Part shown: positions 49,644 to 64,000 of the stretch, one piece after another
How positions within the stretch are numbered: the first letter of the stretch is position 1
How the letters are laid out: each line of letters opens with the position of its first letter
Source of the DNA: Sphingomonas alpina
Lineage (GTDB): Bacteria; Pseudomonadota; Alphaproteobacteria; Sphingomonadales; Sphingomonadaceae
Direction: 5' to 3'
Assembly: GCF_014490665.1 (NCBI RefSeq)
Contig: NZ_CP061038.1
Location: forward strand, 5,106,501 to 5,170,500
Length of the DNA: 64,000 nucleotides
Made by a program: the position numbers and the translations under genes
Notes under the pieces: generated by a model
What the model was told of the DNA's origin: nothing
Seen by the model: the letters and a program-made list of their open reading frames with translations, nothing else
Database searches by the model: none

Positions 49644-50582
49644 ATGTCCGATGCGGTAGGCGAGATGCTTGGTACGAGCGACGCGATTACGCGTCTGCGC
49701 GCGCTGACGCCTAAAATCGCCCGCAGTTCCGCGCCGATCCTGATCACCGGCTCCACCGGCACCGGCAAAGAGCATTTCGCGCGCGGTCTCCACCGCGCCA
49801 GCCGCCGGGCTCATGCGCCATTTGTCGCGATCAATTGCGGCGCGATCCCCGACACGCTGTTCGAGGCCGAACTGTTCGGGTTCGAGCGTGGCAGCTTTAC
49901 CGGCGCCTTCCAGGCACAAAAGGGAAAGGCCGTGCTGGCCGATGGCGGCACCCTGTTTCTCGACGAAATCGGGGAATTACCGCCACTCAGCCAGACCAAA
50001 TTGCTGCGCATGCTCGAAGAGCGCGAGGTCAATCCGATCGGCGCCCCGCGTCCGGTCAAGGTCGATCTGCGCATCGTCGCGGCGACCAATCGCGCGGTCG
50101 AGGAGCAGGTCGAAGAGGGGAGCTTCCGCAGCGATCTCTATTATCGCCTCAATGTCGCGCGCGTCGATCTGCCGGACCTGAGCGAGCGGCGCGAGGATAT
50201 CGCGCTTTACCTCCACCACTTCATCGATCGTTTCAATCGACGCGACGATTGCCGGGTCGGCAGCCCCGACAATGAGCTGATGAACGTGCTGCTCGATTAT
50301 GACTGGCCCGGCAACGTTCGCGAAGTGCGCAACTTCGTCGAAGGGGTCTTTATCGACCCGCCCGACGGCCCGATCGGCGTATGTCATATTCCCGCCGCCT
50401 TCCTTCGGCTGCAGTCGAGCTATTCGCGGAGCAGCGACGAAGAGCGCAACCTTATCCTGTCGGTGCTGGAGAAGACCGACTGGAACAAGGTCGAAGCCGC
50501 GAAGGAACTGCACTGGTCGCGCATGACATTGTACCGCAAGCTGACCAAACACCATGTCACACGCGGCGGCGCCGGGAGCTAA
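49644..50582 (+). CDS. Sigma-54-dependent transcriptional activator, PspF-like (no sensor domain)
   Basis: The ATG at 49644 (312 residues) has GGGGAAAG upstream. Only about ten residues precede the AAA+ domain, so there is no receiver, PAS or GAF domain; in this it resembles PspF. Walker A is GSTGTGKE at 36-43, the sigma-54-contacting loop is GSFTGAF at 83-89 (canonical GAFTGA with Ala to Ser), Walker B is GGTLFLDE at 101-108, and DWPGNVREVRNF follows. A Fis-type HTH closes the protein (EAAKELHWSRMTLYRKL). It binds enhancers and remodels the sigma-54 holoenzyme. It is encoded just before a near-consensus sigma-54 promoter, so it very likely controls the operon from 51054 onward. A partner would have to regulate its activity. 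Confidence 0.93.
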   Translation: MSDAVGEMLGTSDAITRLRALTPKIARSSAPILITGSTGTGKEHFARGLHRASRRAHAPFVAINCGAIPDTLFEAELFGFERGSFTGAFQAQKGKAVLADGGTLFLDEIGELPPLSQTKLLRMLEEREVNPIGAPRPVKVDLRIVAATNRAVEEQVEEGSFRSDLYYRLNVARVDLPDLSERREDIALYLHHFIDRFNRRDDCRVGSPDNELMNVLLDYDWPGNVREVRNFVEGVFIDPPDGPIGVCHIPAAFLRLQSSYSRSSDEERNLILSVLEKTDWNKVEAAKELHWSRMTLYRKLTKHHVTRGGAGS

Positions 50583-50722
50583 AGCCTCGCGCTGGCAGCG
50601 CCGTGGCGATCCTGTTTCGACACTAGGAAAGAGCGCGCCGATATAAGGCCGGCAAGCGATGACATGCCCGAGTCCGTGTGACGGTTGAATCGCCACCGGC
50701 GACAGGGTCGTGGGAGATATGG

Positions 50723-50970
50723 GACACCGGTTGTGTCGTATCTTTTTGCGCTACCTCTGCCAGGCGGCTAATATAATATCTTTATATATCAAGGGCTAAT
50801 GCGACACATAAGGTCTTGGGCATCGCTTGGGCACGAGGCGGGGTTTCGATATGATTTCGCCCACGCAATAATCCCTCGGCAGGAGCGGACCGATTTTTAC
50901 GCTCGAGGCTCCGGGGGCGTAACACTGTCGCAGCCGCGATCGGGGAGTGTGACACAATAGCTGTTACACA
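50723..50970. promoter_or_regulatory. Candidate enhancer sites for the sigma-54 activator
   Basis: Related motifs recur upstream of the sigma-54 promoter: a perfect GACAC-CGGTT-GTGTC palindrome at 50723-50737, GCGACACA at 50801-50808, GTGTGACAC at 50947-50955 and TGTTACACA at 50962-50970. They lie about 40 to 285 bases before the promoter, a normal range for upstream activating sequences. Assignment to the adjacent activator is inferred. Confidence 0.45.
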
Positions 50971-51007
50971 CCGCGGAAAAAACGGCTGATTTCCGGCAAA
51001 TATCAAC

Positions 51008-51023
51008 TGGCACGCAACCTGCT
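51008..51023 (+). promoter_or_regulatory. Sigma-54 (-24/-12) promoter
   Basis: TGGCACGCAACCTGCT matches the consensus TGGCACG-N4-TTGCW at all specified positions but one, with GG and GC exactly ten bases apart. It lies 30 bases before the DUF3467 start codon and downstream of a sigma-54 activator gene, which makes a chance match unlikely. Confidence 0.85.
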
Positions 51024-51053
51024 GATGCTTGGCAAGCAGGGAGTGACTTGCCC

Positions 51054-51458
51054 ATGAAGCGGTTGAGATCGGTATCGGAAGCAAATGAGCGCGCGGGCGG
51101 TGAGTCCGAAGGCGTCGTTGCCGCGATCTACGTCAACTATTTCGAGCTCGGGCATAACCCGTTCGAGTTCCTGATCGATTTCGGCCAGTTCCATCCCGGC
51201 CTTGCGGACGGCGAAGGCGCGACCGCGATTCACAGCCGCATCGCGCTCGCCCCGCCTTACGCCAAGATGCTGTCGGCACTGCTCGCCCGATCGGTGCGCG
51301 AGCATGAAACCGAATATGGTCCGATCGCCGTGGTCGGTGCGCTCTCCAGCCCGATCGATTCAGTACTCAGCCCGCTCGGCGATTTCGAGGAGCGCGCCCG
51401 CGCGCTGCGCTCGCAACAGCCCCATTCCACTTCGGCCCCTTCAAACAACCATAGGTGA
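51054..51458 (+). CDS. DUF3467 domain protein
   Basis: The ATG at 51054 (134 residues) has AGGGAGTG at a good distance. The DUF3467 core is clear: IYVNYFELGHNPFEFLIDFG followed by HSRIALAPPYAKMLSALL and HETEYGPI. These are small beta-rich cytoplasmic proteins of unknown role, often encoded with other genes of unknown function. The last 20 residues are polar and look disordered. It is the first gene of the sigma-54 operon, five bases before the protease gene, so it is expected to be made in the highest amount. Confidence 0.85.
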   Translation: MKRLRSVSEANERAGGESEGVVAAIYVNYFELGHNPFEFLIDFGQFHPGLADGEGATAIHSRIALAPPYAKMLSALLARSVREHETEYGPIAVVGALSSPIDSVLSPLGDFEERARALRSQQPHSTSAPSNNHR

Positions 51459-51462
51459 TTCG

Positions 51463-54400
51463 ATGACTGCGCAGATTCGCCCCAACCGCATGGAAGTCAG
51501 CGACCGGTTCCCGATGCTCGGCTTTGCCGTTCGCACCGACGAACCCAATGTCGAGGCTGAAGTGGTGCTCGCCAATGACATCGCCCTGTTCGGCGGTCAG
51601 AACAGCAACCGGCGCACCGCGGCCAATTTCTATTCCAGCCGGGAGCATGGCACACTGACGGTACCGCGCGGCGAGGGCGTCTTCGTCGTACCGCCCGATG
51701 TGCTGGCGCGCTTCATCGGCAGTGAGAAGATCTTCTTCGGCCTAGCCACCGGGCATGGCGGCAATGGCGGCCTGAACGTCGACGCGCTGCCGCGCGACGG
51801 CAGCCCCTATGTGTCGCTGCGCGGCTTCACCGGCCGCACGCTGCGGCGCAATTTCGGTGGTGCGCGCGGGTCGGGCGCACCGCGTCTGGAATGGACCGGC
51901 GATGCGCCCAAGCCCGGCAGCGAAGGCTCGAACGGGTCGGGCAATGGTGCTGCATCGGCGATCGCGTCGAACGGCGCCAATGGCGCGTCGGCAGCACCTC
52001 AGCCCTCGGGCAAATATGATGACGGATTCGGCCCGATGCCGGCGATCCCGGCGCGTGAGAGCAGCTATCGCGGACGCCCGACGGCGAGCGGCCGGCAAAT
52101 GGGTCGCGGGCAGGCGGTCGGGATCACGATGAGCAGCGGCACGACCGCCGCCGCCGCGCTCGACTGGATCCGCACCAAGATCGAGCAGGGCGTGCAGGCA
52201 GCGGGATCGCATGTCGATCCGCCGTCGATCTATTATCTCGGCGACAATAGCAGCATCTTCATCCGCGCCTGGCAGATCACGTTCGGGGCGACCGCGCTGT
52301 TCGTGCCGACCAACGGCTTTCTTGCGGCGATCCCGTCACTCGCTGCCGAGACCGGCGTGACATTGTCGATCGGGCCGGTGCTCGATACGCCGCTGTTCGG
52401 CGGCGGGATTGGCGTGGCGTTCTCGCCCGACGGCCAGGTGGCGCTGTTCGGCGCCGGCGAGATCAGCGCCGATTTCGACGGCCTGCTCGAATTCGTGAAA
52501 TCGCTCAAGCTCGCGCTGACCGCGAAAATGAAGCTCGGTTATAATCGCGGCGGGCTCGCCAAATTCGCCGATATCAGCACGGTCGCCGGCATCAACGTCG
52601 GCGAGGAGGTCGTCGGCGGATCGGAAATCTGGCTCGATTCGACCGGGAGCGGCATTGGCGGCGCGGTTAGCATCGGCGTCGGTTTCGCGCTGCAACTCGC
52701 GGCGCAACAGGCCCCCGCCCGTCGCGTCGGCATCACCATGAGCAGCGGGACGACGGCCACTGCCGCGCTCGACTGGATCCGCGCGAAAATCGAACAGGGC
52801 GTGCAGCTGGCGGGCGACACGGTGGACCCGCCATCGATGTATTATCTCGGCGACAATAGCAGCATCTTCACGCGCGCCTGGCAAATCGGCCATGGAGCCG
52901 CCGCGCTATTCTCGCCGTTCAGCGCCTTCCTCGCAGCCTTGCCGGGGCTTGCCCGCGACAGCGGCGTGACCTTGTCGATCGGCCCGGCCCTCGACACGCC
53001 CTTGTTCGGCGCCGGGGTCGGCGCGGTCTTCGCGCCGGATGGGCAGGTCGCCTTGTTCGGAACCGGAGAAATCAGTGCCGACTTCGACAGCTTGAGCGAA
53101 TTCGTCACCTCGCTGAAGCTCGCGCTGCAGGCCAAGATGAAGCTTGGCTATAATCGCGGCGGACTGGCGAAATTTGCCGATCTTCATACCGTTGCCGGGG
53201 TGAGCGTCGGTGAGGAACTGGTCGGCGGCGCGGAAATCTGGCTCGATTCGACCGGCAGTGGCATCGGCGGCGCGGTCAGCATCGGCGTCGGCTTCGCGCT
53301 GCAGCTGGCGGAGCAGGAAGCCACCGAGAGCAAGGCGGGTTCGCCCGCCTATGTGCCGCCGTCGCTGCCCTCCGACCCGCGCCAGCGCGCGACGCGCATC
53401 GGCGGCAGTTTCGGTCAGCGGATCGGCGAGGCGCTCGACCTCGGGCTCGATGGTGCGACGATCACGCCGCTGCTCGACAAGCTCGATCCTCCGATGGCCG
53501 CGCTGCCGCTTGGCGTGGCCCGGTCGCTGAACGCCACCACCTGGTCGATCAACTGGGACGGCATCGATGCGGTGCCGCAACCGACCGGCAAAAGCTGCTG
53601 GGCGACGACGCTGTCGATGCTGATCGGCTGGCGCGACAGCAAGAGCGTCATGCCGTCCTGGGTCGCCGAACAATGCGGACGCACCATCAATGATGGCTTG
53701 CCTTGGGCGAACCGCGCCGACGCCGCTGCCGCCCTCGGTCTCGGGACGGTCGCGCCGGCCTGCTACACGCCGGACGGATTTGCCGGCCTGATCGAACAGC
53801 ATGGCCCGCTTTATGTCGGCAAGATCATGAGCGACACGATCCATTCGGGTCACGCTGTGCTCGTCGTCGGCATGTATTCCGACGGGCAGAATTATTTCGT
53901 CCGCGTGGTCGACCCCTGGGATCGCCCGGTCGGCACGCCCGGTGCGCCCGACCCCTATGAGAGCACGCACAATAGCGGCAGCCGCTACATCATGCGCTAC
54001 GAGGATTTCCAGAACGAGTATGAAATGGCCGCGGCGGGCAACCCCGCTTATGTCCAGATCATCTATGCCGGCGTTCCCCTGGGGCAGGCGATCAACCGGG
54101 GCACCGGCGCGCCATCCGGCTTTGCGATGTCCACGCCGCAAGCGCGGTCACGGGCCAGCGCAGCGGCATCCTCCGGGCGCCGCGTACCGGCCAATGCACT
54201 GGTCGCGCCCGCAGTCGCCGTAGAAGTGGGGATCGCTGTCGGGTCGGTCATCGGTGGCGCGATCGTCTCCGCATCGGGCACCGACATAACCTATCAGGTC
54301 GATTCATATCGCGGCTGGAAGCGACCGCGACAGCTCGATGCCCAGGCGCCGCTCAACATTGTCGAAGACGCGTCGATCACGATCGATTGGGATGACGATT

Positions 54401-54726
54401 CGATCCTCGACTCGATCGGGATGAAGCTCGACATTCGCTGGCAATATGATGGCTGGTCGCTCGGCAACGTCATCATGGTCGCGCATGGCTTCAACGATGC
54501 CGTCGGCGATGCGCTGGCCGTGCACGCGCAGATTTCGGAAACCGATAAACCGTTTATCGGTACCAGCCCGACCAGTGCGCCGCGCTATATCAACAATCCC
54601 GGGGCGATGCTGGTCGTGACGATCACCTATCGTCGCGAGCGAATGGTGCGGGGCGACGAGGTCTATGAAAAGGTGATCACGCTGCTGCCGACTGGCCAGT
54701 ACGTCGAATCCGGTCGCGAACTCTGA
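51463..54726 (+). CDS. Papain-like (C39-like) cysteine protease with duplicated N-terminal domain
   Basis: From the ATG at 51463 (AGGTGA upstream) the protein has 1087 residues. Residues 1-100 form a unique N-terminal domain, 140-215 are a Gly/Ser/Ala linker, and 219-413 and 422-616 are two nearly identical domains (each from VGITMSSGTT to GVGFALQLA). A protease domain follows at about 690-870: QPTGKSCWATTLSML gives oxyanion Gln706 and nucleophile Cys712 with papain spacing, SGHAVLVVGM gives His797, and VVDPWD gives Asp817. A hydrophobic Ala/Val/Gly stretch near 912-937 could cross or touch a membrane, and a beta-rich C-terminus ends the protein. No signal peptide. All triad residues are present; substrate unknown. 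Confidence 0.8.
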   Translation: MTAQIRPNRMEVSDRFPMLGFAVRTDEPNVEAEVVLANDIALFGGQNSNRRTAANFYSSREHGTLTVPRGEGVFVVPPDVLARFIGSEKIFFGLATGHGGNGGLNVDALPRDGSPYVSLRGFTGRTLRRNFGGARGSGAPRLEWTGDAPKPGSEGSNGSGNGAASAIASNGANGASAAPQPSGKYDDGFGPMPAIPARESSYRGRPTASGRQMGRGQAVGITMSSGTTAAAALDWIRTKIEQGVQAAGSHVDPPSIYYLGDNSSIFIRAWQITFGATALFVPTNGFLAAIPSLAAETGVTLSIGPVLDTPLFGGGIGVAFSPDGQVALFGAGEISADFDGLLEFVKSLKLALTAKMKLGYNRGGLAKFADISTVAGINVGEEVVGGSEIWLDSTGSGIGGAVSIGVGFALQLAAQQAPARRVGITMSSGTTATAALDWIRAKIEQGVQLAGDTVDPPSMYYLGDNSSIFTRAWQIGHGAAALFSPFSAFLAALPGLARDSGVTLSIGPALDTPLFGAGVGAVFAPDGQVALFGTGEISADFDSLSEFVTSLKLALQAKMKLGYNRGGLAKFADLHTVAGVSVGEELVGGAEIWLDSTGSGIGGAVSIGVGFALQLAEQEATESKAGSPAYVPPSLPSDPRQRATRIGGSFGQRIGEALDLGLDGATITPLLDKLDPPMAALPLGVARSLNATTWSINWDGIDAVPQPTGKSCWATTLSMLIGWRDSKSVMPSWVAEQCGRTINDGLPWANRADAAAALGLGTVAPACYTPDGFAGLIEQHGPLYVGKIMSDTIHSGHAVLVVGMYSDGQNYFVRVVDPWDRPVGTPGAPDPYESTHNSGSRYIMRYEDFQNEYEMAAAGNPAYVQIIYAGVPLGQAINRGTGAPSGFAMSTPQARSRASAAASSGRRVPANALVAPAVAVEVGIAVGSVIGGAIVSASGTDITYQVDSYRGWKRPRQLDAQAPLNIVEDASITIDWDDDSILDSIGMKLDIRWQYDGWSLGNVIMVAHGFNDAVGDALAVHAQISETDKPFIGTSPTSAPRYINNPGAMLVVTITYRRERMVRGDEVYEKVITLLPTGQYVESGREL
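52117..53310 (+). repeat. In-frame tandem duplication of a 195-codon domain
   Basis: Codons at 52117-52701 and 52726-53310 encode near-identical 195-residue blocks, offset by 609 bases. Shared stretches include YYLGDNSSIF, DTPLFG, PDGQVALFG, KMKLGYNRGGLAKFAD and EIWLDSTGSGIGG. DNA identity is also high, pointing to a fairly recent duplication or ongoing gene conversion. Confidence 0.95.
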
Positions 54727-54746
54727 GCCAGGGACAGAGATCGATC

Positions 54747-55883
54747 ATGGCATCGTCCTACGGCTCCCCGCCCGCGCACCGCTCGCTCCAGGCATCGAAG
54801 CGTGTTCCCGCCAGCGCCCTGGCGGGGGACTTCTGGGGCGGCCGGTCCGGAACGACCGCGCCCGCTGGCGACGGCAGCGATATGTCCGAAACGACGACCG
54901 AGACGTCGCCCACGCCCGCCAGCACCAAGGCGCCGCCCGCGACGGAAACGCTTGGCCGTCGGGCGGGCGCGGTCACCGATGAGCTCGACTTTCCCGAATT
55001 CGTCTCTTCCCTGATCCATGGCACGTGGGACGCGATGGTCGATTCGTCGATCCGCCAGATGGACGCCTATGCCGATCTGGTCGCGGCGATTTCCAAGCCG
55101 ATGGCGCAGTTCCGCGAAGAGAATGTCACCGCGAACCAGGCGCGCGACTGGCTTGTCTCGCAATATCCCGGCGATCTGGCTCTGGCGCGCGACGACAGCG
55201 GCGTCGCGGTCGTGCCGCGCGGCGCGCTCGACGAGTTCGGCAGCGGTCCGTCGCCGGACTGGCTGCGCGATTTCGGTGCCGCCGATCAGCCGCTCACCCC
55301 CGAGCTGATCGAGGAAGTGCTGATACCCGCGGCGCGCGACCGGCTGGCGGGCGACCGTATGCAGACCCTGGCGACATTGGTCATGCTCGGCATGAACCGC
55401 ATCGTCGTGCGCGACGGTTCGATCACCGCGCGGCTGAAGTTCCGCGCGGCAGCCAGCGACAAATCGTCGGTCGATTATGCGGTCAGCGACGATCCCGGCA
55501 GCGCGACGCCGTCGGGCAACTGGTCGACCCGCGGCAGTACCGCCTATGCGGCACCCGTCACCAAGGTATCGACGGTCGGCGTCAATGCGCAGACCGACAC
55601 GACGATGAATGCCGAACTGTTCGGCGAAGTGAAGATCAATTTCGCCAGCGAGACGATCCCGCTCGACCGTTTCGCCGACGATGCGCGCCGGACCATGCTC
55701 GAGCGCGCCGCGCGGCCGATGCCGCCGACTGCTCCCGCCACGGCTCCCGCTCCCGCCGTCCCGCCCGCTACGATCGCTCCGGCAGCAATTGCTGCGCCAC
55801 CGTCGCCGCCGGTCGCAGCGCCGCCCGTCCTCGCACCGGCCTCGATCATCACCCCGTCACAGCCGATCGGCGCAACCCCATGA
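54747..55883 (+). CDS. Protein of unknown function, paralogue A of a three-member family
   Basis: The 378-residue protein has a low-complexity N-terminus (Ser/Thr/Pro/Ala), a core from about 80 to 310, and a Pro/Ala-rich tail. The core reads FPEFVSSLIHGTWDAMVDSSIRQM, AYADLVAAISKPMAQFREEN, then LATLVMLGMNRIVVRDGSI with TARLKF, and GEVKINFASETIPLDRF near its end. The same order of motifs occurs in the genes at 61447 and 62779, so the three are paralogues. I do not recognise the family. A helical first half and a beta-rich second half are likely. It ends in an ATGA overlap with the next gene. A structural or assembly role is a guess based on multiplicity and disordered tails. Confidence 0.75.
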   Translation: MASSYGSPPAHRSLQASKRVPASALAGDFWGGRSGTTAPAGDGSDMSETTTETSPTPASTKAPPATETLGRRAGAVTDELDFPEFVSSLIHGTWDAMVDSSIRQMDAYADLVAAISKPMAQFREENVTANQARDWLVSQYPGDLALARDDSGVAVVPRGALDEFGSGPSPDWLRDFGAADQPLTPELIEEVLIPAARDRLAGDRMQTLATLVMLGMNRIVVRDGSITARLKFRAAASDKSSVDYAVSDDPGSATPSGNWSTRGSTAYAAPVTKVSTVGVNAQTDTTMNAELFGEVKINFASETIPLDRFADDARRTMLERAARPMPPTAPATAPAPAVPPATIAPAAIAAPPSPPVAAPPVLAPASIITPSQPIGATP

Positions 55884-56146
55884 CGTCCGCCCGCCGCCTA
55901 CTCGAAGACATGATCGGCGAGCTCGCCGACAGCATGATCGCGTTGCCCGAGACGCAAGCGGGCGGCGGGCTGCGCACCACCCGCATCGAACTCACCTTGC
56001 CGGTCGAAACGCGCGTCACGCGCGGTCCTGCGGGGCTGCGCATCGAAGCCGACATGCCGCGCACCCATACGCGAACCGATTTCGACTTGCCGGTCGGCCG
56101 CTTCACGCTGACCCTGGCCGAAGTACCGGTCGAGGCCGTGTCATGA
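55880..56146 (+). CDS. Small protein of unknown function (88 residues)
   Basis: The ATG at 55880 overlaps the preceding stop (ATGA), and the stop at 56144 overlaps the next ATG (ATGA), which makes this short frame convincing. The sequence has a helix SARRLLEDMIGELADSMIAL, then alternating strands TRIELTLPVETRV, LRIEADMP and GRFTLTLAEVP. A small all-beta domain behind one helix is likely. The layout is reminiscent of the small trypsin-co-occurring domains encoded near peptidases, but the match is too weak to assign. It is translationally coupled on both sides. Confidence 0.7.
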   Translation: MTSARRLLEDMIGELADSMIALPETQAGGGLRTTRIELTLPVETRVTRGPAGLRIEADMPRTHTRTDFDLPVGRFTLTLAEVPVEAVS

Positions 56147-56955
56147 CCGGCAACGGCTCCATCGCGCTGGAGGATTTCATCCAGGCGGTCCAGCTTCAGC
56201 TCGACACCGCCCAGACGCGCATGAGCCTCAAGGCGCAGAACGACAGGCTGCCGCTGACCTTCGCGATTCGCGACATCGCGATGGATCTGAAAGCGCATGT
56301 CGAACTCGACGACGGCGAAATCCGCATTCGTCCGGCTGGTCCTCAGGACAAGGATCCAACGGTCCTGAAGCTGACCTTCACCGCGATCACGCGGCCGATG
56401 ATCGAGGAAAATGCGGTCCAGCTCGCGATCGATAACAAGGACGATGTCCTGTTGTCGTCCCTCGGCGATGACGAGCTTGACCAGGACGAACGCCGCCGGC
56501 TCGAGGGGATCGGCGTGCGCACCGTGTCGAAGCTCAACGAAATCCGCAAACAGGGATTGGGCGGATCGGTCGGGCGGATCACGCGGCTGCCGATCGACAA
56601 GCTGGAAAGCGTGCTGTCGCGCGCTACCCGGCCATTGGTCGACGATGTGTCGAGCGAGCCCGACGGTGCCGACGAGTTGCGCCAGCGGCTGCGTATCAAG
56701 GGGCGCAATTTGCTGCGCGACGGCACGCCACCGCGCGTGTCGATCGCCGGACGGCCGGTCAATGTCGTCCATGCCAGCGATACCGAAATCGTGCTGGCGC
56801 CGGATATCGATCAGCTCGCCGGGCAGATGAGCCTGAGCCATGACAGCAAAGCCCCGACCGAATTGTGGTTCGACCAGAGCCATGCCGCGCCGCCGCTGAT
56901 GCAGCCCGTCATCGAGGGCAATGGTGCGCTGTACGGCAATGGAGGCCACGCATGA
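56143..56955 (+). CDS. Three-part protein: trypco2-like, HhH-like and IPT-like regions
   Basis: The 270-residue protein starts at an ATG overlapping the previous stop. Residues 8-85 (IALEDFIQAVQLQLDTAQTR, LPLTFAIRDIAMDLKAHVEL) have the helix-plus-beta pattern of the trypsin-co-occurring domain 2 (trypco2) type found near peptidase effectors. Residues 119-140 (LEGIGVRTVSKLNEIRKQG) look like a helix-hairpin-helix, a DNA- or protein-binding element. Residues 185-232 (IKGRNLLRD, VSIAGRPVNVVHASDTEIVLAP) resemble an IPT/TIG beta-sandwich. These assignments are from pattern only. It stands directly before the subtilisin gene with an ATGA overlap. Confidence 0.6.
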   Translation: MTGNGSIALEDFIQAVQLQLDTAQTRMSLKAQNDRLPLTFAIRDIAMDLKAHVELDDGEIRIRPAGPQDKDPTVLKLTFTAITRPMIEENAVQLAIDNKDDVLLSSLGDDELDQDERRRLEGIGVRTVSKLNEIRKQGLGGSVGRITRLPIDKLESVLSRATRPLVDDVSSEPDGADELRQRLRIKGRNLLRDGTPPRVSIAGRPVNVVHASDTEIVLAPDIDQLAGQMSLSHDSKAPTELWFDQSHAAPPLMQPVIEGNGALYGNGGHA

Positions 56956-58397
56956 GCGTCAGCCGCGCCATCCTGCCCTGGGCGCATCGCTCGGGTGCCT
57001 ATGCATTGCCGACCAGCCTGCTCGTGCGGCTGAAGCTTGGCGAAGTGCCTGCCGGGATCCCGGCCGCGCTCGACGTCCGGCGCAAGGCCGCGTCGCCCGC
57101 CGGCAGCACCGGGCACGGTGCGCTCGACCGGGTGGTGAGCAGTTTCGGCAGCCATGTACAGGTCTCGCGGCTCCATGCCGCGGCGCGGGCGCTCCGCAAC
57201 GTCGGCGCGCGCAACATGGGGTATAGCGAGGAAGAGGAGGTGTCGGGCATCGCTCGGGTCCTGCGCTTCGACGTGGCCGAGGGCACGCATGTCGGGTCGC
57301 TTGCCATCTCGCTGATGCAACTCGATCTGGTCGAGTCCGCGATCCCCAATTATATCACCACCGTCGGTCTCGACGGGCCCGATATGCCCCGGCGCCCTTC
57401 GGGCGATGACGATGGCTGGGATCCGCGCGACCTGGTCAATGCGCGGCGCGCGCTCGCCTATGAAGGCGGCGATGCCAGCGTCATCGTCGGTGTGGTCGAC
57501 AGCGGGCTGGCGCTGGAGCATCCCGAATTCGCCGGCCGGCTGCGCCATGGCTATGACACGGTGCAACTGGGCAAGGGCGAGCTGGCCGGCGGCGTCGCGC
57601 TGCTCGGTGACAATCAGGGTGCCGATACCAACCCCACCGACCGCTATGTCGGCCATGGCACGGGCTGTGCCGGGATCATCGGCGGGTGCGGCAGCGAGAT
57701 GCCGCCGGGCCTTGGCGGCGACTGCCGCATGCTCCCGTTACGCGCGCTGGGCGCCGCGCGCTTCCCCGGGCGCGATGCCGCGGTGGGCGTCGGCGCGCTC
57801 AGCGATCTCGACATGGCGCTGGTCATGGCGGCGCAGCTCGGCGCGAAAGTCATCAATTGCAGCTTCGGCACCGAGGATGACGCGCTCGAACCCGGCGCGC
57901 CGAAACCACATGCCGAGGCGGTGGCTTTCGCGACCGCGCGTGGCTGCGCGCTGGTCGCGGCATCGGGTAATAGCGGCGACGACCATATCTATTGGCCCGC
58001 GGCATTTCCCGATGTCATCGCGGTTGGTTCGGTCGCGCTCGACCGGTCGGTCAGCAGCTTCTCGACGCACGGCAAGCACGTTGCGCTTTGTGCGCCCGGG
58101 GAGCGCGTCCGGACCGCGTCGCTCGATGGTTATCAGAGCGCGACCGGTACCAGCTTTGCCGCGCCCTTCGTCGCCGGCGCCGCCGCCTTGCTTGTCGCGC
58201 GCGCCAACACGCGCGCTGCCGCGCTCGACCCGGCTACGATCAAGTCATTGCTGATCGACAGCGCGCAACCGCACCGCGGCGATGTCGGCCCCGGCAATGG
58301 CGCGGGCGTGCTTGATGCCGCGCGCGCGCTCGAACTGCTCGATCAGGCGCTCGACGCCGATGAAACGACTGAATTGGGAGGTGCCGATGACGGCTGA
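56952..58397 (+). CDS. Subtilisin-like serine protease (S8 family), no signal peptide
   Basis: The ATG at 56952 overlaps the preceding stop. The 481-residue protein has an N-terminal region of about 160 residues without a signal peptide, then an S8 catalytic domain with a full triad: VIVGVVDSGL (Asp183), YVGHGTGCAGI (His235) and GTSFAAPFVAGAAAL (Ser401), with oxyanion Asn340 in AASGNSGDD. The N-terminal part could be an inhibitory prodomain or a binding module. Lack of an export signal argues for an intracellular protease, unlike most subtilisins. Coupled to the trypco2-like gene upstream. It and the cysteine protease at 51463 are two active-looking proteases in one operon. Confidence 0.93.
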   Translation: MSVSRAILPWAHRSGAYALPTSLLVRLKLGEVPAGIPAALDVRRKAASPAGSTGHGALDRVVSSFGSHVQVSRLHAAARALRNVGARNMGYSEEEEVSGIARVLRFDVAEGTHVGSLAISLMQLDLVESAIPNYITTVGLDGPDMPRRPSGDDDGWDPRDLVNARRALAYEGGDASVIVGVVDSGLALEHPEFAGRLRHGYDTVQLGKGELAGGVALLGDNQGADTNPTDRYVGHGTGCAGIIGGCGSEMPPGLGGDCRMLPLRALGAARFPGRDAAVGVGALSDLDMALVMAAQLGAKVINCSFGTEDDALEPGAPKPHAEAVAFATARGCALVAASGNSGDDHIYWPAAFPDVIAVGSVALDRSVSSFSTHGKHVALCAPGERVRTASLDGYQSATGTSFAAPFVAGAAALLVARANTRAAALDPATIKSLLIDSAQPHRGDVGPGNGAGVLDAARALELLDQALDADETTELGGADDG

Positions 58398-58455
58398 TCC
58401 ACCCTCCGCCCGGCACTGAACCGACACTTACACTCTCTTCGAAAGGAACATCGAC

Positions 58456-60300
58456 ATGGCAACTCCGACAACCCCGACCCCGCCCGCCTCTCCGTCCGGT
58501 GCAGCATCCAAAGGCAGCGGTGGCATCAAGATCGTCAACATCGATTTCTTGGACATCCGCGATCGCGAGATCACGGCTCGTAGCGACGTCCGCTCCGACT
58601 GGCAGATGCTCGAACAGCGCAAGCAGAAGGTCGGCACGCTGGGCGAGGATGACCAGGCCGAATATAACCGCCTCACCAAACTGCTTGCCGTGGTGAACGG
58701 CACCGCCACCAAGACCCCGCAATTCCTCGATCCGCTGTTCGGTGCGACGCGGCACCTGCTCCGGCAGGACGATCTCGGGCTGCAGCCGATCGAGGTCGAG
58801 CATCGCGGCTTCACTGCCGCATCCAGCGCCAGGCTGGAGTTCCCCAAGCTCGCCAATGCCGACGAAGCGACGCGCGACCGCGAAGTCGCGCGGATCGGCC
58901 TGGTCCTGGGGCTCCTGCAATTGTGGAAAGCGCCACTGCCGCGTCTCATCGCGGATTCGACCGGTGAGGTGAAGGCGGACGACACCAGCCCGAATTTCGG
59001 CGAGTTCGGTGAACAGCTCGTCAAGGCGATGGCACGCGTCTCTACGCGTATCGACCTCGCCGTACGTATCCTCAAGACAATGTCCGATGCGGTCAATGTC
59101 GCGGGCGACGCGCGCGAGCCGGAGATATCGAGCCTCGAATACGCGCAGGTTTTCGAAAAGCTGGTCGAGCGCAATATCTCGGCGAAGGATCCGAACCTGA
59201 AGCCGCAGGTCGAGGAATCGTTCGGGCGCGTGCAGGATATCGGCGCCGAAAAGCCGATGCACGAATTCGAGATCAACTTGCCCGACCTCGAAGCCACGAC
59301 CGAGTTCGAAGTGGTCGGCGACCATTGCCGGCTGATGGGCTCGTTCATCTTCGCATCGGCATTTGAGGAGCTGAAGGCGTTCCAGGTCGTCGACAAGCTG
59401 GTCGAGATGTCGCAGCGCGGCGAGATTCCGCTGATCCGCGGCCCCGCAGGCACGCAGCTCTACAGCTATTGGCGCGAAGCCCCGAACCGGATGAGCGAAG
59501 TCGAGCGGCAGAATTTCTACGCCATGACGCTAGGCCTGCCGACCGGTCAGCCCGGTGTGTCGGTCAACAGCGACTTCCAGGACCTGTGGCTGCGCTTCGT
59601 CTCATCGGTGTCGTCGCTGGTTCGCGAGAGCCGCGTCGATCGCCTGATCCGCTCGTCGCTGCCGGTCGCGATCAACCAGCAACAGGTGAAGAAGGCGGCG
59701 CGCGACCTGGCGGTCAACATGTCGTCGCGCGGTTATGGCATGATCTTCTATGCCGCCGCCGACCTGCAGAAGCAGATCAACGACATGATCGCGTTGCTGC
59801 GCGATCCGGAACTGCGCGCGGCGTTCGGTGCCCGCGACATGTGGGGCGTGATCGACCAGATCGCCCAGACCGAACTGGGCGGCGCCCGCAACTCGTCCAA
59901 ATATCGCATGCTGGCGACGAGCGGCGCGATCATCACCAACTGGATCGCCAACCATACCGACCGGCTGCGTGACCCGACAGCACCGATGGTCGAACTGCGC
60001 GATGTCGAGAATCCGCCGGCGCGCGCATCGGGCCAGACACCCGTGTCCAAGCCGACCGACTATGATCTCGTCAACGCGTGCGAGATGTGGCTGGCGGACT
60101 CGGCGATGGGCGAGGACCGCGTCGAGCAGATGTCGCAACCGCGCGAATCGCCGCAGGTGACCAGCCGCCCGATCCAGATTCCGTCGATCGCGCGCGATCT
60201 GCTCGAAGGCACCGGACTTGGCCTGGGGATGGGTTTCGATCCGGGACTCTCGCGCGCCAACGGCCGTGCCAACGGTCATGGCAGCTATGCGGGCTATTGA
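58456..60300 (+). CDS. Large protein of unknown function (614 residues)
   Basis: The ATG has GAAAGGAAC upstream. Residues 1-25 are low-complexity Pro/Thr/Ser/Gly. The rest is mainly helical, with IKIVNIDFLDIRDREI, LGLLQLWKAPLPRLIAD, FEINLPDLEATTEFEVVG in the middle and SSLVRESRVDRLIRSSLPVAINQQQVKKAARDL in the second half; the tail is Gly/Asn-rich. No catalytic motif, signal or transmembrane segment is evident and I do not recognise the family. It follows the subtilisin gene after 58 bases, in which I see no second sigma-54 promoter, so it should belong to the same operon. Size and low-complexity ends would suit a structural subunit. Confidence 0.65.
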   Translation: MATPTTPTPPASPSGAASKGSGGIKIVNIDFLDIRDREITARSDVRSDWQMLEQRKQKVGTLGEDDQAEYNRLTKLLAVVNGTATKTPQFLDPLFGATRHLLRQDDLGLQPIEVEHRGFTAASSARLEFPKLANADEATRDREVARIGLVLGLLQLWKAPLPRLIADSTGEVKADDTSPNFGEFGEQLVKAMARVSTRIDLAVRILKTMSDAVNVAGDAREPEISSLEYAQVFEKLVERNISAKDPNLKPQVEESFGRVQDIGAEKPMHEFEINLPDLEATTEFEVVGDHCRLMGSFIFASAFEELKAFQVVDKLVEMSQRGEIPLIRGPAGTQLYSYWREAPNRMSEVERQNFYAMTLGLPTGQPGVSVNSDFQDLWLRFVSSVSSLVRESRVDRLIRSSLPVAINQQQVKKAARDLAVNMSSRGYGMIFYAAADLQKQINDMIALLRDPELRAAFGARDMWGVIDQIAQTELGGARNSSKYRMLATSGAIITNWIANHTDRLRDPTAPMVELRDVENPPARASGQTPVSKPTDYDLVNACEMWLADSAMGEDRVEQMSQPRESPQVTSRPIQIPSIARDLLEGTGLGLGMGFDPGLSRANGRANGHGSYAGY

Positions 60301-60330
60301 GAGCCACGCCCGCACAAGGAGGATTGCGCC

Positions 60331-61383
60331 ATGCGCTACGAACCATTGAGCCGACGGATCAAGACCCGCCTGATGACGGCGTCGCGCTCGCTCCGCACCG
60401 CCGACCCGGGGCATTTCGTCAACAACATGATCGAGGACAGTTTCGCCTATCCGATGGGCGACCGGCGCTACGAGGATAATCCGCTGTTGCGCGGTGCCGC
60501 GCCGTTCGTCCCGAAATTCGGCGCGGCGCAGCCTCGTACGCTGGCTTTCGACCTGGAACCGCTTGGCCCCGATGCGTCGGCGGGCGACCGCCGCGATGCC
60601 GCCACGCGCGAGATGCGCCGCCTCGTCGCCGACAATTTCGGCAATGAAGCGCTGCATTGGTACGATGGCGCAAGCGAGAGCAAGCGCGGCCTGTCGCGAT
60701 CCTCCGCGCTCAATTACGGCGCGTTCTTCGGATCGAGTTTCGATGCCAACGGCCTGCAATCGGCGACCGTCACCTATGAGGGCGGCTCGGGCGCGACCAA
60801 CGACGTCAACCCGGCGCTGGCACGACTGATCGGCGCCGCCATGTCGACCATGCCGGGCATGCGGCCGGTATTCACGACGCTTGTCGCGGGCCGGGATTAT
60901 GGCAGCCAGATGGTCACCTTCCTGATGACCAACGGCTTCCGCCTTGCCGAGATGCAGCCGATGCTCGACGAACTCGGGCTGGGCAAGCGGCTCGCCAGCA
61001 TCCTCCAGGTAATCGGCGTCGCGCTTGGCGGGCGCTTCGAGATCCCGCCCGGCGCCGCGCTGGTCGCGTTCGGCCGCAGCCCGCAGGGCGTCGAACTCGA
61101 GCTGCAGGTGATGCTCGACGCGATCCCCGACGTGCCGCCGAATTTCCTGCAATTGCTGACCATGAACTTGCGCGAGCGTCCGCGCGAACTGGGCACGCTG
61201 GAACGTTTTCTCGAGGCCTTTACGCCGGAAGACAATGTCTGGCCGGGACGCTTCAGCATCCTGAGCGTCAAGATCGCGCCATCGGGCCCACCCAAGATCG
61301 GCCTGTTCCTGCGTCCGGTCGAATTCGAGATCAGCCCGTCCGCCGGGCTCGTGTCCGAGGGGACGCCATTGTCGGTGCACTGA
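60331..61383 (+). CDS. Protein of unknown function (350 residues)
   Basis: Strong ribosome site AAGGAGG nine bases before the ATG. The N-terminus (PLSRRIKTRLMTASRSLR) is basic. The middle has RGLSRSSALNYGAFFGSSF, SATVTYEGGSGATN and a Gly/Met-rich helical region (IGAAMSTMPGMRPVFTTL). The C-terminal third, with IPPGAALVAFGRSP, ELELQVMLDAIPDVPP and GRFSILSVKIAPSGPPKIGLFLRP, looks beta-rich. I do not recognise the family and see no catalytic motif. It is 30 bases downstream of the 614-residue protein gene, in the same operon. Confidence 0.65.
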   Translation: MRYEPLSRRIKTRLMTASRSLRTADPGHFVNNMIEDSFAYPMGDRRYEDNPLLRGAAPFVPKFGAAQPRTLAFDLEPLGPDASAGDRRDAATREMRRLVADNFGNEALHWYDGASESKRGLSRSSALNYGAFFGSSFDANGLQSATVTYEGGSGATNDVNPALARLIGAAMSTMPGMRPVFTTLVAGRDYGSQMVTFLMTNGFRLAEMQPMLDELGLGKRLASILQVIGVALGGRFEIPPGAALVAFGRSPQGVELELQVMLDAIPDVPPNFLQLLTMNLRERPRELGTLERFLEAFTPEDNVWPGRFSILSVKIAPSGPPKIGLFLRPVEFEISPSAGLVSEGTPLSVH

Positions 61384-61446
61384 ACCGCGCCGTCGTCGCT
61401 CTGTTACCGCCACCGCTCTGCCGCCGATTGTTCGAGGATCCATGTC

Positions 61447-62775
61447 ATGAACGCAGCCGCTCGCATCCCGCTCGACGACATTGGTGTCGAGCCGCCACCG
61501 CGTCCGGAGGTTCGCGCCAAGGTGCAGGAACTGCTCGCCGCGACGCCGGCCTTTCATCAACTGCCGTCGAGCCAGCAGATGCAGGTCGCGCGCGACACCG
61601 CGCGGATCGCCGACGCATTGGTCGGTCAGGCCGCGCCGGGCACCTCGTCCGTTTCGTCGCAGGCGATGGCGGGCGGCGTCGACCAGTATGAGTCGGACCA
61701 GGCGGCGGTCGATGCGATCGGTAACGACCCCTTCACCGCCGGCGCTGCGCGCGAAGGCGCGGCGATCGCCGGCGAGTTCATGAAGCAGGTCAATTTCGTC
61801 GAATTCGTTTCGGGGCTGATCGACGGCGTGTTCAATTCGATCGTGACGTCGAACATCCAGCAGATGGAGGCCTATTCGAAGATGGTCTCCGACGTCTCGA
61901 AATCGCTCAACCAGTTTCGCGACGACAATACGACGTCAGACGACGGCAAGGATCAGCTGTGCGAGGCGTTTCCCGATGTGTTCGATATCGGGCCCGACAG
62001 CTTTACCGGCGGCACGCAACCGGTCCTCAAACTGAAGGACGGGGTGGATCAGGACGCGGCGCTCGCCAATGTCGCCGGTACGCTCAACCAGCATGCCGAC
62101 AAGCCGATCGAGTCAATCGACGTGTCCGATCCGGAAGTGCAGGAAACGCTGATCAAGGCCGCGCGCGGGCAGATCGCTACGTCGCGGCAGCAACTGCTCG
62201 CGACGATGGTGCTGATGGGCCTGTCGCGCATCGTCGTGACCAACGGCAAGATCTCGGCGAAGATCATGTATGATTTCAACGCGTCGAGCCAACGTCAGCT
62301 CTCGCGTACCGCCATGGCGCGTGACTATGCCCGCGATGCGCAAGGCAATCTGCTGAAAATGGGGACGACCGAAACCGAGAATGAAACGAGCGACAAGGGC
62401 TCGCGCTCGCGCAATAGTTCCTACGAGGCCGGAAAGGGTAGTTACACCGGCACGTACGACGCCGATTACTACACCAAGGGCAAGTATAAATATACCGAGA
62501 AGCCGGTCATGACGGCGCAGTCGATGGCGAGCGAGACGCAGAACGACAATTTCTCCGCCAAGGCGAGCCTGATGGGTGCGGTCGAGGTCAATTTCAAATC
62601 GGACTATATGCCGCTCGACAAGATGGCGACGCCGGAAATGATGGCGGCGATCCAGATGCGCTCCAAGCCGATCGATCACAACAAGCCACAATATACGCCC
62701 GGTCCCGCACCGGCACCGGTCGCTGCTGCGCCGCCGCCTGCGCCGGCACCTGCCCCGGCGCCGGCAAGGGCCTGA
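61447..62775 (+). CDS. Protein of unknown function, paralogue B of a three-member family
   Basis: The 442-residue protein begins with MNAAARIPLDDIGVEPPPRP, then a helical region, LLAATPAFHQLPSSQQMQVA, and the family core: FVEFVSGLIDGVFNSIV, QQMEAYSKMVSDVSKSLNQF, LLATMVLMGLSRIVVTNGKISAKIM and VEVNFKSDYMPLDKMATPEMMAAIQ. A Tyr/Lys/Ser-rich insert (about 320-350) separates the last two motifs. It ends in a Pro/Ala tail like paralogue A. GAGGATCC precedes the ATG. It is closest in layout to the next gene, which starts four bases after its stop. Confidence 0.75.
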   Translation: MNAAARIPLDDIGVEPPPRPEVRAKVQELLAATPAFHQLPSSQQMQVARDTARIADALVGQAAPGTSSVSSQAMAGGVDQYESDQAAVDAIGNDPFTAGAAREGAAIAGEFMKQVNFVEFVSGLIDGVFNSIVTSNIQQMEAYSKMVSDVSKSLNQFRDDNTTSDDGKDQLCEAFPDVFDIGPDSFTGGTQPVLKLKDGVDQDAALANVAGTLNQHADKPIESIDVSDPEVQETLIKAARGQIATSRQQLLATMVLMGLSRIVVTNGKISAKIMYDFNASSQRQLSRTAMARDYARDAQGNLLKMGTTETENETSDKGSRSRNSSYEAGKGSYTGTYDADYYTKGKYKYTEKPVMTAQSMASETQNDNFSAKASLMGAVEVNFKSDYMPLDKMATPEMMAAIQMRSKPIDHNKPQYTPGPAPAPVAAAPPPAPAPAPAPARA

Positions 62776-62778
62776 GCC

Positions 62779-64000
62779 ATGAACGCCGCATCCGTCATCG
62801 AACGCCACGAGGTCGCGGTTCAGCCGCCGACCGGCCTGTCTCCCGATGCGCTGGCCCGCGTGCGCCCCAAGGTGCAGTCGATGCTGACGCAGATTCCCGC
62901 TTATGCGCAGATGACGAACGAGGAACAGGCCAAGCTCGCGCACGACATGGTCAAGGTGCTCGCCTATATGGACGACCCCAACCGCATCGTCGAACAGACC
63001 GCCCCCGTGCTGGCCCCCGTCCTGGCCGAAGCGCAGGCCGACGCCAATGAACAGACGCGCAAGAACCTGTCCCAGTCGCCCGGTTTTGCCGGCAAGGATT
63101 TCGTCGCCGGCGCCGCGGCACAGGGTACCGACCAGTTCGTTCGCTTGGTCAAGGAAGTCGATTTCCCGGCCTTTGTCGGCGGGCTGATCAACAATGTGTT
63201 CAAGACGATCGTGGAAACCTCGATCGAACAGATGCGCGCTTATGGGGAGCTGGTCGCCGCCGTTGCGAAGACCGCGGAAGATTATATGGCCGAGAATATC
63301 GGCATGGGTCAGGGCCGCGATTATCTGGCGCAGCGCTTCCCCGATCTGCTCGACGTGGACATCGACGATGACGGCAATTCGAAGTTGAAGGTGACCTCGG
63401 ACGATGAGGAAGCCGCTCTGGCCGAAGTGCATTCGACGCTCGGCATGAGCGGGGAGGCGGCGACCGACCTTTCTGAAGAAGAGACCGAGATGGCGCTGGT
63501 CAATGCGGCGCGCCTGACCATGGCCAAGTCGCGGCAGCAGCTTCTGGCGTCGATGGTGATGCTCGGGATCAACCGTATCGTCGTGACCGACGGCTCGATC
63601 GTCGCCAAGGTGAAGTTCGACATGCGCGCGACCGATGAAGCGAAGCGCGGCTATCGTGCTTCGGCCTATGATCGCCAGACCAGCCGGAACAAGAATGTCA
63701 GCGCCTTTGGCGGCGGGTTCCTCGGTTTTGGCGGTGGCTCGGTCAACGTCAACGAACAATCGCATGTCGCGACCGTCAGCACTGGTGTCGACGAGACGAG
63801 CGAGTCGAAACTCGATCTGACGGCCAAGCTGCAGGGCGAGGTCCGGGTCAACTTCAAGTCCGATTATCTGCCGCTGGAGAAAATGGCGACGCCCGAGATG
63901 ATCGGCGCGATTCAGGGCAATTCGCAGCCCACCCCGCCGCGCAACATGGCGCGTTCCGGAGCGACGCCGACGCCTGCCGCGCCGGCGACGCCGGGACAAT
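62779..64000 (+). CDS. Protein of unknown function, paralogue C (runs off the right edge)
   Basis: The frame opens at the ATG at 62779 and is open for 407 codons to the window end. It repeats the whole plan of paralogue B: a short N-terminus (SVIERHEVAVQPP), helical LTQIPAYAQMTNEEQAKLAHDM, the core FPAFVGGLINNVFKTIV, then EQMRAYGELVAAVAKTAEDYM, LLASMVMLGINRIVVTDGSIVAKVKF and VRVNFKSDYLPLEKMATPEMIGAIQ, and a Pro/Ala tail. The insert before the last motif is Gly/Phe-rich (AFGGGFLGFGGG). The operon therefore continues beyond the window. Confidence 0.75.
   Translation, partial: MNAASVIERHEVAVQPPTGLSPDALARVRPKVQSMLTQIPAYAQMTNEEQAKLAHDMVKVLAYMDDPNRIVEQTAPVLAPVLAEAQADANEQTRKNLSQSPGFAGKDFVAGAAAQGTDQFVRLVKEVDFPAFVGGLINNVFKTIVETSIEQMRAYGELVAAVAKTAEDYMAENIGMGQGRDYLAQRFPDLLDVDIDDDGNSKLKVTSDDEEAALAEVHSTLGMSGEAATDLSEEETEMALVNAARLTMAKSRQQLLASMVMLGINRIVVTDGSIVAKVKFDMRATDEAKRGYRASAYDRQTSRNKNVSAFGGGFLGFGGGSVNVNEQSHVATVSTGVDETSESKLDLTAKLQGEVRVNFKSDYLPLEKMATPEMIGAIQGNSQPTPPRNMARSGATPTPAAPATPGQ

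What the first reader, a model, noticed from the sequence alone, without database searches (positions are those of the whole stretch)
49644..64000. Candidate new system: a sigma-54-controlled operon with two intracellular proteases and a family of unknown paralogues
A PspF-like activator without a sensor domain is followed by a near-consensus sigma-54 promoter and at least nine co-directional genes, many with ATGA overlaps: DUF3467, a 1087-residue papain-like protease, paralogue A, an 88-residue protein, a trypco2/HhH/IPT-like protein, a subtilisin, two large unknowns, paralogues B and C. None has a signal peptide, and both proteases keep full triads. Peptidases with trypco-type domains and multiplied low-complexity-tailed proteins recall NTP- or protease-based conflict systems, or an assembly with self-processing. 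I cannot match the set to any described system.
Basis: partly seen in the sequence, partly recalled or inferred. Interest (0 to 1): 0.85.

Follow-up and report, generated by a model that had tools for sequence, protein, structure and literature searches.

The report
New conserved multi-protease assembly operon
This is a block of eleven genes kept together and in the same order in bacteria from several phyla; it encodes a changeable multi-enzyme protein, a protease, a prenyltransferase-shaped protein and four sister proteins with predicted long hairpins, and it matches no system we could find described.

Summary
The operon runs past the window end: after paralogue C come a 319-aa protein and a fourth paralogue. 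A search seeded with the 350-aa member found 37 loci; 28 hold all 11 core genes and 36 keep one order, from Sphingomonadales, Burkholderiales and Lysobacter to Desulfobulbus, a cyanobacterium and a chloroflexot. Four results change the reading. (1) The 'papain protease' is modular: fixed N-terminal domain, swapped middle (C70, trypsin, amidase, C92, M15), recurring C-terminal domain. (2) An 'unknown' has the DMATS prenyltransferase fold; two conserved residues are lost in the window copy. (3) The four paralogues lie only in the cluster in 18 genomes searched; paralogue C is modelled, at low confidence, with one very long beta-hairpin. (4) A sigma-54 site precedes DUF3467 in 9 of 9 clusters found with it. 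No phage or viral-contig relatives were found. Best reading: a cytoplasm-made assembly with a variable hydrolase payload, matured by its subtilisin. The unit is well supported; the mechanism is inferred.

The parts
49644..50582 (+). PspF-like sigma-54 activator without sensor domain (312 aa)
   Evidence: Sigma54_activat 217.7 bits, AAA_lid_14, HTH_8; relative at the same place in 6 of 37 loci and a sigma-54 regulator annotated there in plasmid locus L070
50947..50969 (.). Candidate activator binding site, imperfect inverted repeat GTGTGACA-N7-TGTTACAC
   Evidence: Read by eye; not tested
51008..51022 (+). Sigma-54 promoter TGGCACGCAACCTGC (-24/-12)
   Evidence: Script scan; a site with at most 2 mismatches in 9 of 9 clusters that carry DUF3467
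51054..51458 (+). DUF3467 protein (134 aa)
   Evidence: PF11950, E 3.5e-10
51463..54726 (+). Gene 2: modular hydrolase (1087 aa): fixed N-terminal domain ~1-155, two tandem ~205-aa modules from residues 219 and 422 (162 of 205 identical), C70 papain-like domain 706-821, recurring C-terminal domain (~930-1080, bounds by eye)
54747..55883 (+). Hairpin paralogue A (378 aa)
55880..56146 (+). 88-aa core protein, ATGA overlap with A
   Evidence: found in 30 of 37 loci
56143..56955 (+). Trypco2-like protein with a TIG-like C-terminal part (270 aa)
   Evidence: 10 of 29 family members match Trypco2, best E 2e-4; 2 of 29 match TIG, best E 0.001; the window copy is below both cut-offs
56952..58397 (+). 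Subtilisin (S8), 481 aa, with ~170 residues before the catalytic domain and no signal peptide seen
   Evidence: Peptidase_S8 128.5 bits, residues 176-441; D183, H235, N340, S401 in 32 of 32 rows
58456..60300 (+). 614-aa protein; its C-terminal half is homologous to the 319-aa protein encoded beyond the window
   Evidence: hhalign probability 99.7, E 5.8e-26
60331..61383 (+). 350-aa protein with the DMATS-type prenyltransferase (PT-barrel) fold
   Evidence: AF2 pLDDT 86.6, pTM 0.85; Foldseek CymD 6os3 E 1e-11, probability 1.00, TM 0.69
61447..62775 (+). Hairpin paralogue B (442 aa)
62779..64000 (+). Hairpin paralogue C (407 aa; its stop codon ends just past the window). Beyond the window: 319-aa protein at L009:5000-5959 and paralogue D (522 aa) at L009:5961-7529

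Best explanation
The locus encodes one multi-protein assembly made in the cytoplasm. SHOWN: 11 genes form a conserved, horizontally moving unit with fixed order; gene 2 is a modular hydrolase whose N-terminal domain is kept and whose peptidase and amidase domains are swapped; four hairpin paralogues are present in every whole cluster; the subtilisin keeps its triad; the 350-aa protein has the DMATS fold; one subtype has a conserved sigma-54 promoter and activator. INFERRED: the four paralogues join through their mostly helical bodies into a hetero-oligomer whose long beta-hairpins form a stalk, tube or pore; the 614/319 pair, the Trypco2-like protein and the 88-aa protein hold it together; gene 2 is the payload, held by its fixed N-terminal domain; the subtilisin cuts one or more components to mature or release it; the DMATS-fold protein prenylates a component (perhaps to anchor it to a membrane) or, in the window's own clade, has kept only a structural role. 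The payload (peptidoglycan amidases, M15 and NlpC-like domains, trypsin- and papain-like proteases) suits attack on, or digestion of, other cells or their envelopes. Release would need lysis or an outside route, because no core protein looks exported.
For: Co-occurrence and order: 28 of 37 loci complete, 36 of 37 in order. In 18 whole genomes searched (of the 37 loci), paralogues occur only in the cluster: 17 have A-D, and one broken cluster has B-D in pieces. Fixed N-terminal domain of gene 2: one copy per genome in 18 of 19. Gene 2 census, 29 members: C70 in 26, Trypsin_2 in 22, Amidase_2 in 12, C39_2 in 12, C92 in 9, DUF3238 in 5, NLPC_P60 in 4, M15_3 in 1. Paralogue C model: mostly helical body 111-261 and strands 266-308 and 321-362; base of strand 2 alternates hydrophobic/polar in 67 of 67 rows. 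The 50 Foldseek rows shown (of 266) are dominated by ring and barrel-stalk proteins: FliF rings, phage tail/collar proteins, protective antigen pore (probability 0.96), CDTb (0.94), lysenin, aerolysin. S8 triad 32 of 32. DMATS fold.
Against: The hairpin has pLDDT of only about 49-68 by block and the model pTM is 0.46; Foldseek TM-scores normalised by the query are 0.06-0.13, so only 'a long hairpin' is matched, not a fold. The first part of strand 1 shows significant alternation in 0 of 67 rows, though with the same sign in 67 of 67. No relatives in phages or viral contigs, and no sheath, tube or baseplate family hit in the proteins scanned. No export signal by hydropathy; gene 2 alone has windows over 1.6. 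Gene 2 has no orphan relatives with the same N-terminal domain in 19 genomes, unlike many tagged effector families. Nothing here shows that the proteins bind each other.
Confidence: 0.35

Rival explanations
1. Intracellular protease-based conflict (immune) system: on a trigger the subtilisin or gene 2 hydrolases are unleashed inside the cell, killing it and stopping a phage; the Trypco2-like protein regulates the peptidases.
For: Trypco2-like domain beside trypsin-like domains in 22 of 29 gene 2 proteins; Trypco2 was defined by co-occurrence with trypsins in conflict operons (passages of PMC7159879 seen); sparse, horizontally moving distribution; swapped effector domains.
Against: No NTPase, sensor or nucleotide-signal family was hit in the core proteins scanned; peptidoglycan amidases and M15/NlpC-like domains make little sense in the cytosol; PADLOC gave only generic subtilase/IetS hits, for the S8 alone. 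Defence-island context was not examined.
Confidence: 0.2
2. Biosynthetic or peptide-modification cluster: the DMATS-fold protein prenylates and the subtilisin trims a precursor made from one of the small proteins, as in cyanobactin-type pathways.
For: DMATS fold; S8 has a match to PatA/PatG far below cut-off (88.4 bits against 421).
Against: No YcaO or other RiPP enzyme among the core proteins scanned, and no hypervariable precursor seen; the 88-aa protein is a conserved domain (alignment); Glu60/Arg72 of the DMATS-fold protein are lost in the window copy, yet the cluster is otherwise whole.
Confidence: 0.1
3. Developmental or envelope structure: the proteins build an intracellular or cell-surface body (cyst, coat or storage type) and gene 2 hydrolases remodel or dissolve the cell wall when it is needed.
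For: Sigma-54 control, soluble proteins, amidase and M15 domains.
Against: Sparse and horizontally spread, with paralogues in 3 of 149 genomes sampled from the family; swapped payload domains suggest a variable outside target.
Confidence: 0.15
4. A degenerate or domesticated phage or tail-like element.
For: Foldseek lists phage tail and collar proteins among long-hairpin proteins, ranks 2, 3 and 27.
Against: PHROG hits below E 0.001 only for S8 and DUF3467; no relatives of the 350-aa protein in 50,697 phage records or of the paralogues in the viral-contig scan.
Confidence: 0.05

Closest known systems
Trypco2/peptidase modules of NTP-dependent conflict systems (eLife 2020, PMC7159879; passages seen)
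   Same: A Trypco2-like protein next to trypsin-like peptidases; operon with several peptidases
   Different: No MoxR, vWA, STAND or other NTPase family hit in the core proteins scanned; 11-gene fixed order; hairpin paralogues and a DMATS-fold protein do not appear in the passages seen
DMATS-type aromatic prenyltransferases (CymD, PriB, IptA, FgaPT2)
   Same: PT-barrel fold over the full length; Glu60 in 32 of 35 and Arg72 in 31 of 35 rows
   Different: Below Pfam's cut-off by sequence in the 10 looked at singly (best 20.7 bits against 25); sits in a multi-protease operon; the window copy lacks Glu60 and Arg72
Beta-hairpin pore and stalk proteins (protective antigen, CDTb, lysenin, FliF ring)
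   Same: A very long two-stranded hairpin on a globular body
   Different: Mostly helical body, four paralogues, no signal peptide seen; no fold-level match (TM about 0.1)
DUF2589 proteins (PF11655)
   Same: By eye: F-x-x-x-V/I helix start, hairpin-like strands, Gly-aromatic tip, PL/MP motif before a last helix; two neighbouring copies in each of two genomes
   Different: Profile comparison not significant (probability 0.4)
AvrRpt2/C70 and polymorphic-toxin hydrolases
   Same: C70, trypsin, amidase and C92 domains swapped behind a fixed N-terminal domain
   Different: One copy per genome and no orphan cassettes in 19 genomes; no known secretion signal seen; immunity genes were not searched for

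Membership tests
Sigma-54 regulon | -24/-12 element GG-N10-GC upstream of the first gene, with an AAA+ activator | tested here: met
   Site with at most 2 mismatches in 9 of 9 DUF3467-bearing clusters; activator beside it in the window, 6 of 37 loci and L070
Sigma-54 regulon | Same control in the other subtype | tested here: not met
   Of 6 such loci with some upstream DNA, only L044 has a site with at most 2 mismatches; activator presence could not be judged there
DMATS prenyltransferase | PT-barrel fold | tested here: met
   Five beta-hairpin repeats, pTM 0.85; CymD E 1e-11, TM 0.69
DMATS prenyltransferase | Catalytic-type Glu and diphosphate-binding Arg (roles recalled from FgaPT2, positions inferred) | tested here: not met
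   Window has V60 and A72; the 31 rows outside its 4-row clade have E60 and R72; in the clade E60 is kept in 1 of 4 and R72 in 0 of 4
DMATS prenyltransferase | Prenyl transfer activity | not testable with these tools
   Needs an assay
Trypco2 family | Pfam Trypco2 match | tested here: inconclusive
   Window copy E 0.13, 12.9 bits below cut-off 24.2; 10 of 29 members match, best E 2e-4
NTP-dependent ternary conflict system | NTPase core (MoxR-vWA, STAND or similar) in the operon | tested here: not met
   No such Pfam match in the core proteins scanned; the 319-aa protein was not scanned and the 88-aa protein only in its window copy
Contractile injection or phage tail system | Sheath, tube, baseplate or spike proteins | tested here: not met
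   No such PHROG or Pfam match at E 0.001; paralogue D and the 319-aa protein were not scanned against PHROGs
Cyanobactin/RiPP pathway | YcaO or cyclase enzymes and a variable precursor | tested here: not met
   None among the proteins scanned; the 319-aa protein was not scanned
Beta-barrel pore-forming protein | Amphipathic hairpin forming an oligomeric barrel | tested here: inconclusive
   Hairpin predicted at low confidence; strand 2 base alternates in 67 of 67 rows, strand 1 in 0 of 67
DUF2589 (PF11655) | Profile-level homology | tested here: not met
   hhalign probability 0.4; no PF11655 hit in 12 paralogues
Known anti-phage systems | PADLOC model match for the set | tested here: not met
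   Only generic subtilase/IetS hits for S8 (activator, paralogue D and the 319-aa protein not scanned)

The most novel reading that the evidence does not exclude
A new class of bacterial protein-delivery assembly, unrelated to phage tails and known secretion systems: four obligate hairpin paralogues build a hetero-oligomeric beta-stalk or pore that carries a single, exchangeable multi-hydrolase polyprotein, matured by a dedicated cytosolic subtilisin and tuned or anchored by a DMATS-fold prenyltransferase.
Probability: 0.25. Interest if true: 0.93.

Novelty: categorically new. Interest (0 to 1): 0.78.

Why it matters
A strictly ordered 11-gene unit that has crossed phyla and keeps four obligate paralogues plus a swappable enzyme cassette is very likely a machine with an important job, yet in the one annotated record seen 9 of its 12 post-promoter genes are called hypothetical, and none of the 7 full-text searches listed a description. 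If it is a delivery or lytic particle it would add a weapon outside the known secretion and tail families. It also puts a DMATS-fold protein, a fold known from small-molecule prenylation, into a protein-assembly setting. The gene set is small enough to clone and test at once.

Tried and rejected
Paralogues as DUF2589: suggested by eye, not significant by profile; kept only as a lead. Paralogues as a known Pfam, PHROG or PDB sequence family: no significant match. The 88-aa protein against the Trypco2-like domain and the paralogues: not significant. The 614-aa family against Pfam and PDB sequences: nothing convincing. The 350-aa family also matched Qn_am_d_aIII weakly (21 of 35, best E 0.0039); the fold search speaks for DMATS instead. 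Phage or tail origin: rejected. Gene 2 as one of several tagged effectors: no second N-terminal domain in 19 genomes. Other conserved flanking genes: none shared by all; a small ORF directly upstream of gene 2 in 7 loci, and a gene that looks SARP-like by eye near 5 loci (not scanned). The first class and phylum searches with a four-row profile found only the window genome, 1 of 385 and 1 of 398; they scored at most 4 candidates per genome, so they may understate the spread. The PF11991 genome search rang nowhere, controls included, so it shows nothing. A planned C-terminal-domain alignment failed on frame and was not repeated.

Rows left out: one search used 18 of the 37 loci's genomes, another the same 18 plus the window genome. 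The 67-row paralogue alignment holds a hand-picked part of the paralogue frames found (137 frames hit). The 350-aa alignment leaves out L051 and L059 (near-identical) and the split L068 copy. The gene 2 census leaves out L051, and several of its rows are cut by the end of the DNA held.


Full report
Observation. The sigma-54 site is TGGCACGCAACCTGC at 51008-51022; its first base lies 46 bases before the DUF3467 start. The operon continues outside the window: L009 (window genome) shows a 319-aa protein and a fourth paralogue, D, then genes that look unrelated (by eye cytochrome b561/YceI; not scanned). The unit is therefore DUF3467 - gene 2 - A - 88 aa - Trypco2-like - S8 - 614 - 350 - B - C - 319 - D, with the activator in front.

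Is it a unit? In two further genera of the same family relatives of all 13 genes are found in the same order; in one of them gene 2 matches only at its N-terminus. Paralogues were found in 3 of 149 genomes sampled from the family, the window genome included. A scan of the genome collection seeded with a three-row alignment of the 350-aa protein gave 37 loci. Iterated HMM searches over all open frames of those loci placed the core genes: 28 of 37 loci hold all 11 core genes (DUF3467 and activator not counted; gene 2 is often cut by the end of the DNA held, and in L068 three genes are split by frame breaks), and 36 of 37 have them in order. Eight of the nine incomplete loci reach a contig end on the side where genes are missing (ranges); the ninth, L055 (Cupriavidus necator A5-1), lacks gene 2 to S8, has broken frames and looks like a decaying copy. 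The seed was the 350-aa protein, so loci lacking it could not be found. In the opposite direction, 18 whole genomes (of the 37 loci) searched with a 67-row paralogue profile hold paralogues only inside the cluster: four genes in 17, one of these with D in two pieces, and B-D in pieces in the Cupriavidus genome.

Spread. The tree of the 350-aa protein (37 rows) places the window next to Rhizobacter sp. Root1221, a betaproteobacterium (74% identity), within a 9-row group that also holds Erythrobacteraceae, an uncultured Sphingomonas, Thermaurantiacus, Massilia, Burkholderia and Desulfobulbus rows; the other 28 rows include Lysobacteraceae, Chitinibacteraceae, Comamonadaceae, a cyanobacterium and a chloroflexot. 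Several long branches make deep joins unsure, and the root is a midpoint. A complete cluster lies on the 880-kb plasmid pBPJTT of Burkholderia pyrrocinia, with 9 of its 12 post-promoter genes annotated as hypothetical proteins. No relatives of the 350-aa protein are in 50,697 phage records, and none of the paralogues in the viral-contig scan.

Control. DUF3467 was found in the window, in 7 of the 37 loci (L033-L035, L037-L039, L069) and in L070. In all 9 a GG-N10-GC site with at most 2 mismatches to TGGCAC-N5-TTGC begins 28-150 bases before the chosen start codon: two perfect, six with one mismatch, one with two. In the whole window such sites number 17 on each strand. Of 6 loci of the other subtype with some upstream DNA, 1 (L044) has one. 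On this evidence sigma-54 control belongs to one subtype.

Gene 2. Its first ~155 residues align in the 15 rows taken from loci that hold that end and occur once per genome in 18 of 19 genomes, with no second copy (the miss is Cupriavidus; in the Lysobacter spongiae genome the match lies on another contig, which fits a contig break inside gene 2 but was not verified). The middle is swapped. Over 29 members, some cut by contig ends: C70 26, Trypsin_2 22, Trypsin 18, Amidase_2 12, C39_2 12, C92 9, DUF3238 5, NLPC_P60 4, M15_3 1, M15_2 1. Examples: L042 has Amidase_2 and trypsin each twice, then C70; L038 has C92 and no C70; L040 has C70, M15 and trypsin; L037 has none of these peptidases, only a DUF3238 match and several C-terminal-type modules. 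The window copy has two near-identical tandem modules (162 of 205) and one C70 domain. This is the pattern of a carrier with an exchangeable hydrolytic payload.

The 350-aa protein. By sequence it matches Trp_DMAT in 25 of 35 rows, best E 1.3e-4, and a second family, Qn_am_d_aIII, weakly in 21 of 35. Of 10 looked at singly, 7 match Trp_DMAT at E up to 1, all below the Pfam cut-off and only over residues ~50-120. The AF2 model (pLDDT 86.6, pTM 0.85) shows five repeats of helices plus beta-hairpin, and all 50 Foldseek rows shown (of 477) are DMATS-type or related aromatic prenyltransferases, first CymD (E 1e-11, probability 1.00, TM 0.69). Glu60 and Arg72, which sit where DMATS enzymes have the catalytic Glu and a diphosphate-binding Arg (recalled roles, inferred positions), are E/R in 31 of 31 rows outside the window's 4-row clade; in the clade Glu60 is kept in 1 and Arg72 in 0, and the clade hangs on a long branch (1.44 changes per column). 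The fold is shown; activity is not, and the window copy may be non-catalytic.

The four paralogues. The AF2 model of C (67-row alignment, mean pLDDT 71.5, pTM 0.46) has a mostly helical body (blocks 171-250 at 93-98) and one long hairpin, strands 266-308 and 321-362 (blocks at about 49-68), with a last helix. The base of strand 2 alternates polar and hydrophobic residues in 67 of 67 rows at p<0.05; the start of strand 1 in none, although the sign is the same in 67 of 67. Foldseek lists FliF rings, phage tail and collar proteins, protective antigen pore (probability 0.96), CDTb (0.94), lysenin and aerolysin, with TM-scores of about 0.1; 2 of 266 matches reach E 0.001. These share a long hairpin that builds a ring or barrel stalk; this suggests but does not show the same for A-D.

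The rest. The C-terminal half of the 614-aa protein is homologous to the 319-aa protein. The 270-aa protein is Trypco2-like in 10 of 29 members. S8 keeps D, H, N and S in 32 of 32 rows, and its best NCBIfam match is the type VII mycosin, far below cut-off (144.8 against 278.75). No core protein of the window has an export signal by hydropathy, and only gene 2 has strongly hydrophobic stretches.

Reading. The evidence for one functional unit is very strong (I put it at 0.97). The step to 'assembly with a hydrolase payload and a hairpin stalk' is inference (0.35): it explains the fixed set of four paralogues, the single swappable enzyme gene, the kept protease triad and the lack of transport signals. 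The main rival is an intracellular protease-based conflict system (0.2), which explains Trypco2 and mobility but not peptidoglycan hydrolases.

Literature. The terms DUF2589, trypco2, DUF3467 and Peptidase_C70 and three combinations were searched in the open PMC library; none of the listings described this operon. I read passages of PMC7159879 and PMC3949148 only; the others were seen as search listings. Subscription papers and preprints are not covered.

Noticed in passing
window 50582-50808: A dispersed intergenic repeat lies between the activator and the sigma-54 promoter: 32 of the 41 other match rows fall on this stretch, 73-100% identical, all over the chromosome.
   Followed up: no
window 51463-54726 (P0003 from residues 219 and 422): Tandem ~205-aa modules of gene 2 are 162/205 identical, which looks like a recent duplication.
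   Followed up: partly
L049, L052, L060, L066, L068: A gene whose start looks like a SARP-type regulator (by eye) lies near the cluster in five Ramlibacter/Rhizobacter loci, possibly replacing sigma-54 control.
   Followed up: no
L041, L043, L044, L049, L052, L064, L065: A small conserved ORF sits directly upstream of gene 2 where the sigma-54 subtype has DUF3467.
   Followed up: no
L070:24570-29167: Downstream of the Burkholderia pyrrocinia plasmid cluster lie a large adenylate/guanylate cyclase-domain protein and a patatin-like phospholipase.
   Followed up: no
L055: Cupriavidus necator A5-1 carries a broken remnant of the cluster without gene 2, A, 88, Trypco2-like and S8.
   Followed up: partly
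L028:825-2064; L029:1471-2898: DUF2589 genes come as neighbouring pairs and resemble the hairpin paralogues by eye; possible distant relatives.
   Followed up: partly
window 48723-49097: Small ORF that looks like an NTF2-like protein (by eye) upstream of the activator; an NTF2-family gene is also annotated in L070, well downstream of the cluster.
   Followed up: no
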